Part shown: positions 2-63,999 of the stretch, one piece after another
How positions within the stretch are numbered: the first letter of the stretch is position 1
Layout of the letters: every line of letters starts with the position of its first letter
Source of the DNA: Cupriavidus pauculus
GTDB taxonomy: Bacteria; Pseudomonadota; Gammaproteobacteria; Burkholderiales; Burkholderiaceae
Length of the DNA stretch: 64,000 bases
Assembly: GCF_003854935.1 (NCBI RefSeq)
Contig: NZ_CP033969.1
Span: 2,542,001-2,606,000 of the forward strand
Direction: 5' to 3'
Made by a program: the position numbers and the translations under genes
The notes under the pieces: model-generated
Database searches by the model: none
Told to the model about the DNA's origin: nothing
What the model saw: only the letters and a program-made list of their open reading frames with translations

Positions 2-922
2 ACGCTGCTGCTGGCGACGTGGAACATCCGCGAGTTCGATTCAGGCAAGTACGGCTACCGGTCTGACGAGGCGTACCTGTACATCGCCGAAGTGCTGAGC
101 CGCTTCGACCTGATCGCGGTCCAGGAGGTGCGCGACGGCCTGTACCCGCTGCAGCGCCTGCAGCGGATGCTCGGCCCGTGGTGGGGCCATCTGGTGACGG
201 ACGTCACGCTGGGCGCCTCCGGCAACGCCGAGCGCATGGCCTATCTCTACGACCGCCGCAAGGTGCGCTTCACGGGGCTGGCGGCCGAACTGGTGCTGCC
301 CCCGCCGGGCCGGTCCGCGCCGGCCCCGGTGCAGCTGGCGCGCTCGCCGTACCTGGCCGGGTTCCAGGCGGGATGGGCCTACCTCACGCTGGCCACCGTC
401 CACATCTATTACGGCACCAGCCGGCCCGACGACGCGCGCCGGCTGGCCGAGATCACGGCGTTCAGCCAGACCGTCGCCCAGGCAGCCGGCAAGCTGTCCG
501 CCGCGCCGCAGCCGGCGCCCGGCGCCAAGCCCGATCCGGGCAACCTGATCCTGCTCGGCGACTTCAACATCTTCAATCGCCGCGACGTGACGATGCAGGC
601 CATCACCAAGGCGGGCTTCATCGTGCCGCCGGAGCTGCAATCGGTGCCAGGATCGAACGTGGGCAAGGACCGCCACTACGACCAGATCGCCTATTTCCGG
701 CAGCTGTCGAGCATGGCGCCCACCGGCCGCGCGGGCGTGTTCGACGTGTTCGAGCACGTGTACCGGCTGGCCGATGCCGACGCCTACGCCGCCGAGCGCC
801 AGTCGCGCCCGGGCCGCAGCTTCAAGGACTGGCGGACCTACCGCATGAGCGACCACCTGCCGATGTGGATCGAGTTCGGCATCGACGACGCCGACGCCTG
901 GCTGGAGGGCCTGGCGCGCTAG
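2..922 (+). CDS. Endonuclease/exonuclease/phosphatase family protein (5' partial)
   Basis: The reading frame is open from base 2, so the start lies outside the window; 306 residues are visible. The fold is the DNase I-like metal-dependent phosphodiesterase family. Its signatures appear in order: TWNIREFD at the visible start, QEV (metal-binding Glu), LLGDFNIF (catalytic Asp and Asn) and SDHLPMW near the C terminus (catalytic Asp-His). The substrate cannot be told: family members cut DNA, RNA, phosphoinositides or sphingolipids. No signal peptide can be assessed because the N terminus is missing. The internal ATG at position 92 is not the real start, because conserved sequence lies upstream of it. 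Confidence 0.85.
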   Translation, partial: TLLLATWNIREFDSGKYGYRSDEAYLYIAEVLSRFDLIAVQEVRDGLYPLQRLQRMLGPWWGHLVTDVTLGASGNAERMAYLYDRRKVRFTGLAAELVLPPPGRSAPAPVQLARSPYLAGFQAGWAYLTLATVHIYYGTSRPDDARRLAEITAFSQTVAQAAGKLSAAPQPAPGAKPDPGNLILLGDFNIFNRRDVTMQAITKAGFIVPPELQSVPGSNVGKDRHYDQIAYFRQLSSMAPTGRAGVFDVFEHVYRLADADAYAAERQSRPGRSFKDWRTYRMSDHLPMWIEFGIDDADAWLEGLAR

Positions 923-59787: not shown

Positions 59788-60026
59788 GCTCCCCTCTCCC
59801 GCCCGCGGGAGAGGGGTTGGGGGTGAGGGCCAGCGGCTCAAATCGCGATGTTGGTCGGCAAGCAGAGCCTCAACGCCCTCACCCCCAGCCCCTCTCCCGC
59901 ATTGCGGGAGAGGGGAGCAAGACATCGGGATGTCGAGCTCGCAGCCGAATTTCAGCGATGGTGGTCTCCCCTCTCCCGCCTGCGGGAGAGGGGTTGGGGG
60001 TGAGGGCCAGCGGTTCAAATCGAGAC
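59788..60026. repeat. Palindromic intergenic repeat, locus 7 (full unit plus half unit)
   Basis: A full forward-core unit (59788-59918) is followed by 47 bp and a half unit (59966-60026) that stops inside the core. It occupies the gap between the convergent ThDP gene and the small LexA-box gene. The rest of the gap, 60027-60154, contains only weak AT-rich and GCCGG inverted repeats that might end the minus-strand transcript. Confidence 0.9.
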
Positions 60027-60154
60027 AAATCCCCATTTACCCCGCCATACCCCAAGCCACGAAGCGCCTCATCCAGCACCCCACCGACTTTTACCCCAAA
60101 TTATTCAAAACCAATAATTCCCACTAAACGCCGGAAACTGCCTAGCACACCGGC

Positions 60155-60472
60155 CTAGAACAGCGACCCCTGCGGCCGCTCCTCTCCATGGCCGGCATCC
60201 CGCTGCCGCGCAGGCACAGCCAGGATCTGCCGGATCTGCGCCAGATACCGCTCGCCCACCGCCCGATGCGTCTTCCGCGCCTCTTCCGCAAAGCTGCGCC
60301 GCGACGGCGGCCGGATGTTCAGCATGCGGCAAAGCGTTGACAGGTAAGGCTTTTTCCCATCCGTGGTGGCGCGGCGGGCGGCCGTCAGCAGGGCGGCGTC
60401 GCCAATGCGGCTGCGCAGCCAGATCAACACCTGACGGTCATATTCGTTCTGTACACGGATCAAGTTTTCCAT
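60155..60472 (-). CDS. Small SOS-box-controlled protein with C-terminal clamp-like motif
   Basis: I do not recognise this 105-residue protein. It is basic, without signal peptide or membrane segment, and mostly helical (NEYDRQVLIWLRSRIGDAALLTAARRA, LSTLCRMLNIRPPSRRSF, AVGERYLAQIRQIL). The last five residues are QGSLF, similar to the QL[SD]LF pentapeptide that binds the beta sliding clamp in DNA polymerases and repair proteins. A sigma-70 promoter (TTGAAA, 16-bp spacer, TATATT; 60550-60523) lies under two CTGT-N8-ACAG boxes. It is monocistronic. A role in the DNA-damage response is inferred from control and motif only. Confidence 0.75.
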   Translation of the reverse strand: MENLIRVQNEYDRQVLIWLRSRIGDAALLTAARRATTDGKKPYLSTLCRMLNIRPPSRRSFAEEARKTHRAVGERYLAQIRQILAVPARQRDAGHGEERPQGSLF

Positions 60473-60496
60473 TTCCCAGGGCTCCGAAGGTTCCGA

Positions 60497-60533
60497 TACT
60501 GTTCATGCATACAGTACCTGTAAATATATACAG
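60497..60533. promoter_or_regulatory. Two adjacent LexA-like SOS boxes
   Basis: Box 1 is CTGTTCATGCATACAG (60499-60514), extended by TA on each side. Box 2 is CTGTAAATATATACAG (60518-60533). Both fit CTGT-N8-ACAG exactly. Box 2 overlaps the predicted -10 (TATATT, 60528-60523, minus strand) and box 1 overlaps the transcription start region. The divergent lysR starts 85 bp away and could share control. Confidence 0.75.
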
Positions 60534-60617
60534 TGAATCGGAAATTTCAAGGCCGTGGGTGGGACGTCGGTGCCACAATGGCAACCCCCCGCGTCCCCGC
60601 CCGAATACCGCCTGACC

Positions 60618-61614: not shown

Positions 61615-62967
61615 ATGTCCGCTTTCACGTCCCCGAGCCAGATCCGCGCCCAGTTCTCGCGCGCCATGTCCGATATGTACCGCGCCGAGGTGCCGCAATA
61701 CGGCACGCTGATGACGCTGGTGTCCGATGTCAACGCCGACGTGCTGGCCGGCATTGGCGCGGCCGCCGCCGGCGCCGCTGGGCAGGAGGCCCGGATCGAG
61801 GTGGAGCGGCACGGCGCCATCCGCGTGGGCACGCCCGCCGAACTGGCCACCATCCGCCGCCTGTTCGCCGTGATGGGCATGTTCCCGGTGGGCTACTACG
61901 ACCTGTCCGTGGCCGGCGTGCCGGTCCATTCCACCGCGTTCCGGCCCAAGGACGTGGCCGGCCTGGCCGAGAACCCGTTCCGCGTGTTCACGTCGCTGCT
62001 GCGGCTGGACCTGATCCAGGACGCCGCGCTGCGCGACGCCGCGGCCGGCGTGCTGGCCACGCGGTCGATCTTCACGCCGGGCTGCCTGGCGCTGATCGAG
62101 CGCGCCGAGCAGCAGGGCGGGCTCGATGACGCCGACGCGGCGCAGTTCGTCGCCGAGGCGCTGGAGACGTTCCGCTGGCACGGCCGCGCCACCGTGGACG
62201 CCGAGCTGTACTGGAAGCTGCGCAAGACCCATCCGCTGATCGCGGACATCGTGTGCTTTCCGGGGCCGCACATCAACCACCTGACACCGCGCACGCTCGA
62301 CATCGACGTGGTACAGGCACTGATGCCCGAGCGCGGCATCCAGCCCAAGGCCGTGGTGGAAGGCCCGCCCACGCGCCAGTGCCCGATCCTGCTGCGCCAG
62401 ACCAGCTTCCTGGCGCTGAGCGAGCCGGTGACCTTCCGCGATGGCGGCGAGGCCGGCACCCATACCGCGCGCTTTGGCGAGATCGAGCAACGCGGCGTGG
62501 CGCTGACGCCCAAGGGCCGCCAGCGCTACGACGCGCTGCTGAACGAGGTGCGCCAGATCATCACGCCGGCCGGCGACGGGTCCAACGCGGCGGCCTACCG
62601 CCAGACGCTGGAGTCGGTGTTCCGCGCGTTCCCGGACGACCATGACCAGATGCGGCGCGAAGGGCTGGCGTACTACCGCTACAAGGTGGGCAACACCGCG
62701 GCCGACGGCGCCGACGTCGAAGCCCTGATCGCGGCCGGCGCGCTCGTGGCCGAACCCATCACGTACGAGGATTTCCTGCCCGTCAGCGCCGCCGGCATCT
62801 TCCAGTCGAACCTCGGCGACGAAAACCGCGACGCGCTGGAAGCCTCGCCCAACCGCGTCGCCTTCGAAGCCGCCCTGGGCGCCGCCGTCAGCGACGAACT
62901 GGCCCTGTACGCGGCCGAGCAAGACGCATCGCTGAAAGCCGCACTGAAGGCGCTGGGGGTAGGTTGA
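61615..62967 (+). CDS. hglS: 2-oxoadipate dioxygenase/decarboxylase family protein (HglS/YdcJ)
   Basis: This 450-residue protein is a member of the DUF1338/HglS family. These VOC-fold Fe(II) enzymes convert 2-oxoadipate to D-2-hydroxyglutarate and CO2 in lysine catabolism. Visible features are MSDMYRAEVPQYGTLMTLV, GYYDLSVAGVPVHSTAFRP with a metal-ligand His (H105), the second His region PGPHINHLTPRTLDID, and YEDFLPVSAAGIFQSNL at the C terminus. Length is normal. Other lysine catabolic genes are not in the window, so substrate assignment rests on family. Confidence 0.88.
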   Translation: MSAFTSPSQIRAQFSRAMSDMYRAEVPQYGTLMTLVSDVNADVLAGIGAAAAGAAGQEARIEVERHGAIRVGTPAELATIRRLFAVMGMFPVGYYDLSVAGVPVHSTAFRPKDVAGLAENPFRVFTSLLRLDLIQDAALRDAAAGVLATRSIFTPGCLALIERAEQQGGLDDADAAQFVAEALETFRWHGRATVDAELYWKLRKTHPLIADIVCFPGPHINHLTPRTLDIDVVQALMPERGIQPKAVVEGPPTRQCPILLRQTSFLALSEPVTFRDGGEAGTHTARFGEIEQRGVALTPKGRQRYDALLNEVRQIITPAGDGSNAAAYRQTLESVFRAFPDDHDQMRREGLAYYRYKVGNTAADGADVEALIAAGALVAEPITYEDFLPVSAAGIFQSNLGDENRDALEASPNRVAFEAALGAAVSDELALYAAEQDASLKAALKALGVG

Positions 62968-62979
62968 GCCCTGGTTCTT

Positions 62980-63746
62980 GCTCCCCTCTCCCGCACGCGG
63001 GAGAGGGGTTGGGGGAGAGGGCCAGCGGTCAAAATCGCGACAGATCGGCAAGCAGCACCTCAACACCCTCTCCCCCAGCCCCTCTCCCACGTTGTGGGAG
63101 AGGGGAGAAAACCAGTAGCATGACATTCGCCGGCGGCGTTTTTTGCTCCCCTCTCCCACGTTGTGGGAGAGGGGAGAAAACCGGCGGCATGACATTCGCC
63201 GGCGGCGTTTTTTTGCTCCCCTCTCCCGCACGCGGGAGAGGGGCCGGGGGAGAGGGCCGGCGGTTCAAACTGCGACCTGTCGGCAAGCAGCACCTCAACA
63301 CCCTCTCCCCCAGCCCCTCTCCCACGTTGTGGGAGAGGGGAGAAAAACAGTGGCATGACATTCGCCGGCGGCGTTTTTTGCTCCCCTCTCCCGCACGCGG
63401 GAGAGGGGCCGGGGGTGAGGGCCAGCGGTCAAAATCGCGACCTGTCGGCAAGCAGCACCTCAACGCCCTCTCCCCCAGCCGCTCTCCCACGTTGTGGGAG
63501 AGGGGAGAAAACCAGTGGCATGACATTCGCCGGCGGCGTTTTTTTGCTCCCCTCTCCCGCACGCGGGAGAGGGGTTGGGGGAGAGGGCCGGCGGTTCAAA
63601 TTGCGACCTGTCGGCAAGCAGCACCTCAACACCCTCTCCCCCAGCCCCTCTCCCACGTTGTGGGAGAGGGGAGAAAACCGGCGGCATGACATTCGCCGGC
63701 TGCGTTTTTTTGCTCCCCTCTCACCACGTTGTGGGAGAGGGGCGCA
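62980..63746. repeat. Tandem array of palindromic repeats, locus 8
   Basis: The whole 753-bp gap after hglS is repeat. There are four full forward-core units (starting near 62981, 63215, 63378 and 63544) and two half units (near 63146-63175 and 63712-63746). They are separated by five copies of a roughly 33-bp spacer containing GACATTCGCCGGC (63122, 63191, 63357, 63522, 63688). Periods are 69, 166, 165 and 166 bp. The downstream gene's 3' end (63759-63768) matches the spacer at 9 of 10 bases. Confidence 0.92.
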
Positions 63747-63999
63747 AACCAACGCCGTGGCATTCGCCGAGAAAGTCGGTCTCCGCCACCTCCATCAACC
63801 CATCCACCACCACCGCCCCCGACACCCCCAGCATGACCGGATTCAGGTCGACCGACCGGATGCCGCCTTGTGCCGCGTACACTAGTTGGCCGACCTGCGT
63901 GGCCAGGGTGCAGAGGGCGGCGATGTCCAGCGGGGGATCGCCGCGCACGCCGTCGAGGATGGGGGCGATGCGCAGGCGGCGGACGGCGCGTTCGATGGT
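63721..63999 (-). CDS. Acyl-CoA/acetate-CoA ligase (ATP-grasp) C-terminal fragment
   Basis: Only the last 92 residues are in the window; the gene enters from the right edge. IAPILDGVRGDPPLDI and the ending GIRSVDLNPVMLGVSGAVVVDGLME match the ATP-grasp C terminus of NDP-forming acyl-CoA synthetases and Pat-type protein acetyltransferases. The family normally ends shortly after this strand. Here the frame runs on through about 20 more residues into the palindromic repeat and stops at a TGA inside its hairpin (63721-63723). Confidence 0.85.
   Translation of the reverse strand, partial: TIERAVRRLRIAPILDGVRGDPPLDIAALCTLATQVGQLVYAAQGGIRSVDLNPVMLGVSGAVVVDGLMEVAETDFLGECHGVGLRPSPTTW

What the first reader, a model, noticed from the sequence alone, without database searches (positions are those of the whole stretch)
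60155..60550. Undescribed small protein under two LexA boxes and ending in a clamp-binding-like motif
Two exact CTGT-N8-ACAG boxes (60499-60514, 60518-60533) overlap the -10 and start region of a good sigma-70 promoter (TTGAAA-16-TATATT) that drives only a 105-residue basic protein. The protein matches no family I know, and its last five residues are QGSLF, close to the beta-clamp pentapeptide QL[SD]LF. Known SOS genes coding for clamp binders are polymerases; a short protein of this type could compete for the clamp, stall replication or recruit a repair factor. The boxes and the C terminus are seen directly; LexA control and clamp binding are inferred.
Basis: partly seen in the sequence, partly recalled or inferred. 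Interest (0 to 1): 0.85.

Follow-up and report, generated by a model that had tools for sequence, protein, structure and literature searches.

The report
DNA-damage-controlled small protein with clamp-like tail
A small, conserved and almost unstudied bacterial gene sits under a double DNA-damage switch, and in some lineages its protein ends in a short tag that looks made to grip the replication clamp, hinting at a damage-induced brake or guide at the replication fork.

Summary
In detail: a 105-residue ORF, two exact CTGT-N8-ACAG boxes and a TTGAAA-16-TATATT promoter. LexA control is very likely. Both boxes are exact in 58 of 59 Cupriavidus genomes, and boxes persist in 36 of 38 loci picked from related genera. 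In this genome only lexA and this gene carry two exact boxes side by side. The family is probably 'hypA', a predicted LexA target in PMC3323433 (identity unproven), and is homologous to plasmid 'cryptic plasmid protein A' (CppA). The clamp-like tail is not a family trait: Q..LF occurs in 18 and Q..LPF in 6 of 59 Cupriavidus genomes, 35 lack it, and no other-genus member read here has it. Where present, Q, L and F stay fixed despite synonymous changes and a variable linker; the tree favours two gains, though one origin with losses is not excluded. Best reading: a LexA-repressed, plasmid-derived helical protein that Cupriavidus lineages have tethered to the beta clamp. What the core does is unknown; fold searches gave no credible match.

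The parts
60155..60472 (-). ORF of 105 aa with stop codon: CppA-like, LexA-boxed small protein (probable 'hypA' of PMC3323433)
   Evidence: orthologues in 59 Cupriavidus genomes
60221..60472 (-). conserved helical core, residues 1-84
   Evidence: predicted helices 10-23, 25-37, 44-50, 58-84; conserved residues
60173..60220 (-). variable, probably disordered linker, residues 85-100
   Evidence: pLDDT under 50 at residues 92-98; length varies between species
60158..60172 (-). C-terminal QGSLF, residues 101-105, clamp-binding-like pentapeptide
60518..60533 (.). LexA box 1, overlapping the -10
60499..60514 (.). LexA box 2, downstream of the -10
60545..60550 (-). -35 element TTGAAA
60523..60528 (-). 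-10 element TATATT, inside box 1

Best explanation
This is a stand-alone SOS gene. LexA dimers on two boxes cover the -10 and start region and keep it off until DNA damage (operator architecture shown; repression inferred). It encodes a short basic helical protein of the CppA-like family; distant relatives sit on plasmids, one of them beside replication and partition genes, and in the near-complete genomes checked the gene is mostly on a secondary replicon, so plasmid ancestry is likely (homology shown, direction of transfer inferred). [quoted passage not shown] binding inferred). The most likely job is to act at DNA or the replication fork after damage, slowing or redirecting synthesis, with the tail raising the local concentration at the clamp (inferred).
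For: Double exact box in 58 of 59 Cupriavidus genomes, one exact plus one near in the other; 36 of 38 loci picked from other genera have at least one exact or two near boxes; 5 of 5 copies read from plasmid-collection records have at least one exact box (one of these records is 3.5 Mb and looks like a chromosome); 0 of 5 distant CppA-like copies have any (sequences). Tandem exact boxes elsewhere in the genome only at lexA; recA, dinB, a UvrD-type helicase and the site upstream of imuB have single exact boxes. CppA homology: the A1 profile, built without them, hits the Deefgea and Hydrogenophilus proteins at 1.4e-15 and 8.8e-14 within a small set of ORFs; the Hydrogenophilus CppA is 47% identical to a gonococcal CppA and finds Paraburkholderia members at up to 4e-9 among the rows shown. 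Tail: motif in 24 of 102 distinct tails, shuffling expects 0.17; the tree has no motif-less row inside the clade of 18 pentapeptide rows (support 95/86) or the group of 6 hexapeptide rows (83/39); across the 18, the codons of Q (CAG 12, CAA 6) and L (four codons) vary while the residues do not, and the linker runs from 5 to 36 residues. The host's Hda has QLSLEL and its ImuB QSDSLF, and its DnaN has the DGHRL and MPMR segments (that these line the clamp cleft is recalled).
Against: 35 of 59 Cupriavidus genomes and the other-genus members read lack the motif, so the core must work without it. Position 2 is G, A or T rather than the consensus L. The motif pattern was written after the tails had been seen, and related sequences are not independent. 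A single origin of the motif with later loss is not excluded; the hexapeptide group is weakly supported and its member L131 has a very long branch. No binding, induction or phenotype data were found. The structure model is moderate (pLDDT 78, pTM 0.56) and no credible fold match came up, so 'acts at DNA' rests on basic charge, plasmid kin and SOS boxes.
Confidence: 0.5

Rival explanations
1. SOS-induced cell-division inhibitor standing in for SulA: LexA releases a small protein that delays septation; the tail is an accessory.
For: SulA (PF03846) was found in 0 of 24 Cupriavidus genomes searched; but only E. coli of 14 control genomes rang, so the model is narrow. Damage-induced division inhibitors differ between lineages, for example SosA and the SOS-independent DidA (abstract beginnings in the listing; that they are unrelated is recalled). 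Single-gene operon.
Against: Hydrophilic and very basic (GRAVY -0.65, pI 11.0); a plasmid relative sits beside rep/par genes; a division inhibitor would not need a clamp-like motif.
Confidence: 0.17
2. Translesion-synthesis cofactor: works with DinB or the ImuA-ImuB-DnaE2 mutasome, using the tail to share or hand over the clamp, like a polymerase manager.
For: A LexA box at C3:252974 lies about 1 kb upstream of imuB, and dinB follows another; the non-catalytic SOS protein ImuB binds the clamp (PMC3901139, passages).
Against: The gene is not linked to the imu cassette (C2 against C3); the motif is missing in most species; no family search linked the protein to UmuD or ImuA.
Confidence: 0.15
3. 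The tail is not a clamp motif but another short signal: a C-terminal degradation tag, or a mimic of the SSB C-terminal tip (...IPF, recalled).
For: 17 of 18 pentapeptide tails end exactly at F; the hexapeptide form ends in LPF.
Against: In all 6 hexapeptide proteins and in L040 the motif is followed by further residues; the glutamine is invariant among motif bearers and no acidic run precedes it.
Confidence: 0.1
4. Copy-number or partition regulator of secondary replicons taken over from plasmids, damage control being a way to hold chromid replication; clamp motif secondary.
For: Gene on a contig without dnaA in 17 of 22 near-complete Cupriavidus genomes and 13 of 14 genomes of other genera, one of the latter a draft; plasmid relatives near ParA and, in one, the replication initiator.
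Against: On the dnaA contig in 5 of 22 Cupriavidus genomes, the window's among them; no shared rep/par neighbours seen in the 1.5-3 kb flanks compared; no LexA box at the 5 distant CppA-like copies.
Confidence: 0.15

Closest known systems
'hypA', predicted LexA target of beta-proteobacteria with multiple chromosomes (PMC3323433; sections 7 and 8 and passages read)
   Same: Hypothetical gene with predicted LexA sites and no homologues outside multi-chromosome beta-proteobacteria; the species compared include Burkholderia, Ralstonia and Cupriavidus.
   Different: Locus tags are in a supplement I could not read, so identity is inferred. What I read of the paper does not mention CppA homology, a double box or a clamp motif.
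CppA, cryptic plasmid protein A (gonococcal pJD1 and other plasmids)
   Same: Homologous core including the DR...WL and PY.S motifs.
   Different: Shorter, on plasmids; the 5 distant copies read here (2 of them annotated CppA) have no LexA box and no clamp motif. The role of pJD1 is given as largely unknown (PMC3032703, passages).
SocB (Caulobacter) and RipA (pneumococcus), toxins that target the sliding clamp
   Same: SocB binds the clamp through the usual clamp-binding motif (PMC9690074, passages); suppressors of RipA toxicity map to the same pocket (PMC12795458, passages).
   Different: Those are toxin-antitoxin toxins; here no antitoxin partner was recognised and the gene is under LexA boxes. 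No sequence relation was tested.
ImuB / UmuD type SOS accessory factors
   Same: SOS-controlled, clamp-associated (ImuB: PMC3901139, passages; UmuD recalled).
   Different: No sequence or operon link seen.
p21 (CDKN1A) of animals, by analogy only (recalled)
   Same: Damage-induced small protein with a disordered C-terminal motif for the sliding clamp.
   Different: No homology claimed; the effect on replication here is untested.

Membership tests
LexA (SOS) regulon | CTGT-N8-ACAG box over the promoter | tested here: met
LexA (SOS) regulon | box conserved upstream of orthologues | tested here: met
   58 of 59 Cupriavidus genomes with two exact boxes; 36 of 38 picked loci of other genera with one exact or two near, 2 with none
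LexA (SOS) regulon | LexA binding and induction by DNA damage | not testable with these tools
   no suitable data set recognised in the listings
beta-clamp-binding proteins | pentapeptide QL[SD]LF (consensus from PMC9690074, passages) | tested here: inconclusive
   Q1, L4, F5 met; position 2 is G/A/T, position 3 S/N/T/A; the source says the consensus may vary
beta-clamp-binding proteins | motif exposed in a flexible segment | tested here: met
   pLDDT under 50 at residues 92-98, block means 47 and 51 at the end
beta-clamp-binding proteins | motif constrained within its own lineage | tested here: met
   no motif-less row inside either motif group; synonymous codon changes. Family-wide conservation, which is not required, is absent: 24 of 59 Cupriavidus genomes
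beta-clamp-binding proteins | physical binding to DnaN | not testable with these tools
CppA-like proteins | sequence homology over the core | tested here: met
   A1 profile E 1.4e-15 and 8.8e-14; tblastn chain. Plasmid context is typical of CppA but not taken as defining; the window copy is on the dnaA contig
'hypA' of PMC3323433 | same locus tags | not testable with these tools
   supplement look-ups capped at 0
'hypA' of PMC3323433 | distribution limited to multi-chromosome beta-proteobacteria | tested here: inconclusive
   202 of 399 same-family genomes (the cut-off also lets in weak LysR hits); order-wide 11 of 300, 7 of them outside the family and 6 of those 7 weak
SulA | PF03846 match | tested here: not met
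   no such match for the protein at E <= 1; 0 of 24 Cupriavidus genomes hold one

The most novel reading that the evidence does not exclude
A bacterial counterpart, by convergence, of p21: an SOS-induced small protein, recruited from plasmids, that two Cupriavidus lineages have, apparently independently, fitted with a disordered clamp-binding tail so that LexA release floods the clamp and halts or reroutes replication until repair is done; in species without the tail the same core does a related job by binding something else at the fork.
Probability: 0.2. Interest if true: 0.85.

Novelty: new variant of a known kind. Interest (0 to 1): 0.6.

Why it matters
The gene was found in 59 Cupriavidus genomes, all with LexA boxes, and widely in its family, yet my searches found no function in print. 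If the tail binds the clamp, it is a damage-induced clamp ligand that is not a polymerase, with natural tail-plus and tail-minus orthologues as built-in controls. It also suggests that a plasmid gene family entered the SOS regulon, which makes a concrete question testable: what besides repair and translesion synthesis these multi-replicon bacteria switch on after damage.

Tried and rejected
Motif tied to relocation onto chromosome 1: of 22 near-complete Cupriavidus genomes, the 4 with motif have the gene on the dnaA contig and 17 of the 18 without do not. Rejected because the gene next to the locus in 5 of 6 hexapeptide genomes was found in 7 of 8 genomes searched, each time on a contig without dnaA, so that lineage is probably on the chromid; and G234 is on the dnaA contig without motif.

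Second copies in Burkholderia: of the weak extra hits, the nine that I read (L152-L160) are LysR-type proteins by their look.

Phage origin: no relative in viral contigs; in phages only three weak hits in ribonucleotide reductases. Defence system: no PADLOC match for the window protein.

Conserved neighbours: the pauculus-like clade shares its site with metabolic genes and a LysR gene; I saw no shared functional partner across genera in the short flanks compared.

Literature: the ten searches showed no study of the function of this gene; they cover open-licence PMC papers only, and I read passages of six papers.

Rows dropped: L128 (read into a long frame), L162, L150, L151 and L093 from the tree; these and L091 and L092 from the tail count. 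Several loci are the same genome twice (for example L002 and L031); one search counts Cupriavidus genomes once. The 38 loci of other genera were picked by me from hits, some genomes giving two or three loci and repeats of a locus left out; they are not all 202 genomes. The 16 sites behind the LexA matrix were picked among 36 as AT-rich or next to known SOS genes, so the matrix is not blind; uvrA, imuA and splB-like labels there are my reading, not family matches.

Full report
OBSERVATION. The ORF at 60155-60472 (-) codes for 105 residues ending in QGSLF. The two exact CTGT-N8-ACAG boxes are the only ones in the window, and the promoter TTGAAA-16-TATATT is found by the consensus scan. By count alone two boxes in 64 kb are not very rare (9 of 100 shuffles), and the genome's 36 exact sites compare with 30 for the reversed control pattern, so many single exact boxes must be chance. 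A matrix made from 16 other sites gives the two boxes 27.1 and 17.8 bits against 6.6 for the next site in the window. I chose those 16 among the 36, so the matrix is not blind. Downstream genes checked by family search are lexA, recA, dinB, a UvrD-type helicase, an exonuclease/endonuclease-family gene and two radical-SAM genes; the site at C3:252974 lies about 1 kb upstream of imuB; others are unassigned or named by my reading only.

DOUBLE OPERATOR. In this genome two exact boxes side by side occur at two places, lexA and this gene. The same-genus genomes with a match number 59; of those listed, G024 and the incomplete G416 had none. Their genus is Cupriavidus, since several contigs equal named Cupriavidus contigs in length and match. 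The orthologue has two exact boxes in 58 of 59 and one exact plus one near (G234) in the last; start-to-start spacing is 19 bp in 52 and 20 bp in 6; a TTGnnn-15..18-TATA[TG]T promoter is found in 52 of 59. The 38 loci that I picked from other genera of the family divide into 15 with two exact boxes, 8 with one exact and one near, 7 with one exact, 6 with two near and 2 with none (by genus: g48 5, g35 11, g44 13, g33 7, g37 1, g39 1). Five copies from the plasmid collection all keep at least one exact box (one of these records, L097, is 3.5 Mb and looks like a chromosome); five distant CppA-like copies have none.

FAMILY. The protein has no Pfam, NCBIfam, PHROGs or PADLOC match of note. Profile A1 (11 rows) found members in 202 of 399 same-family genomes, a count whose weak end lets in LysR genes. 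Order-wide, 11 of 300 genomes matched, 7 outside the family and 6 of those 7 weak. In plasmids, 27 records matched at E <= 1e-5, two of them annotated 'cryptic plasmid protein A'; the A1 profile gives 1.4e-15 and 8.8e-14 to these Deefgea and Hydrogenophilus proteins within a small ORF set. The Hydrogenophilus protein matches 143 Neisseria plasmid records, most of those shown annotated CppA, at 47% identity, and Paraburkholderia members at up to 4e-9 among the rows shown. In Deefgea the gene follows the replication initiator and partition genes. PMC3032703 (passages) lists cppA in the second transcript of pJD1 with mobilisation genes and says that the function of the plasmid is largely unknown; PMC4122924 (one passage) notes a Burkholderia terrae ORF with 39% homology to CppA. 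Whether that ORF has LexA boxes was not checked.

REPLICONS. The gene is on a contig without dnaA in 17 of 22 near-complete Cupriavidus genomes and 13 of 14 genomes of other genera (DnaA positions; gene positions). One of the 14, G352, is a draft of 30 contigs and says little. The window's copy is on the dnaA contig.

TAIL. Of 59 Cupriavidus genomes, 18 carry Q..LF, 6 hold Q..LPF inside the tail and 35 have neither; of the 18 distinct Q..LF tails, 17 end at F and one is followed by QADH. No other-genus member read had either form in its tail; QIRLL in three lies in the core helix. Shuffling each of 102 distinct tails predicts 0.17 tails with a motif; 24 have one. The pattern was set after seeing the tails and the sequences are related, so this is not a probability. 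In the tree (104 rows, few columns, many open forks) the pentapeptide rows form one clade (95/86) and the hexapeptide rows one group (83/39) elsewhere, two changes in all; starred branches alone do not exclude a single origin with losses. Inside both groups no row lacks the motif. In the pentapeptide set Q uses CAG 12 and CAA 6, L uses four codons, and the linker runs from 5 to 36 residues, while Q, L and F stay. This is what selection on a short binding motif would leave. The model puts the linker at low confidence, as expected of a flexible tail. In the same genome Hda has QLSLEL near its start and ImuB holds QSDSLF; PMC9690074 (passages) gives QL(S/D)LF as the consensus and says that it may vary.

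MECHANISM. Shown: operator, promoter, conservation, motif constraint, CppA homology. Inferred: LexA repression, clamp docking, action at the fork. I put LexA control at about 0.95, clamp binding of the tail in the motif lineages at about 0.65, and a replication-directed role of the core at about 0.35. Rivals are a division inhibitor (SulA in 0 of 24 Cupriavidus genomes, with a narrow model), a translesion cofactor, a replicon-copy regulator, and a different meaning of the tail.

PRIOR WORK. PMC3323433 (sections 7 and 8 and passages read) predicted two LexA-regulated hypothetical genes in beta-proteobacteria; its hypA has no homologues outside multi-chromosome beta-proteobacteria. The fit is good but locus tags were out of reach. 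The listings showed no paper on the function.

VERDICT. New here, as far as these searches reach: the extent of the double operator, the link of this LexA-boxed family to plasmid CppA (in print only as one ORF's similarity), and the clamp-like tail in two Cupriavidus lineages.

Noticed in passing
G000:C3:620649-620664 (L178, ORF 1576-1932): A second unassigned gene near a LexA box: a 118-aa ORF with no Pfam match at E <= 0.001, 68 bp from the highest-scoring of the 16 sites compared (30.2 bits).
   Followed up: partly
G000:C2:41891 (L101) and C3:1711166 (L181): Two radical-SAM ORFs lie next to exact LexA boxes; one also has a weak helix-hairpin-helix match. PMC3323433 (section 8) predicts SOS control of splB.
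   Followed up: partly
G000:C2:1066009, C2:1274179, C3:464698, C3:976439: The box-like CTGTATGCGAAAACAG occurs four times; the 40-base stretches seen in L105 and L107 are identical, so it is probably part of a repeated element rather than four LexA operators.
   Followed up: no
window 59789-60031 and 62913-63769: Repeats with palindromic CCCCTCTCCCGC..GCGGGAGAGGGG cores, 4 to 7 copies per family, lie downstream of this gene and again about 2.5 kb upstream of it.
   Followed up: no
L128 (G411): One Cupriavidus copy keeps both boxes and matches model positions 1-66 only, then runs into a 332-aa frame, so it may be broken or fused.
   Followed up: no
L150 (G082:C3) and L151 (G370:C1): CppA-like proteins without LexA boxes coexist with the LexA-boxed type (L137, L145) in the same genomes.
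   Followed up: partly
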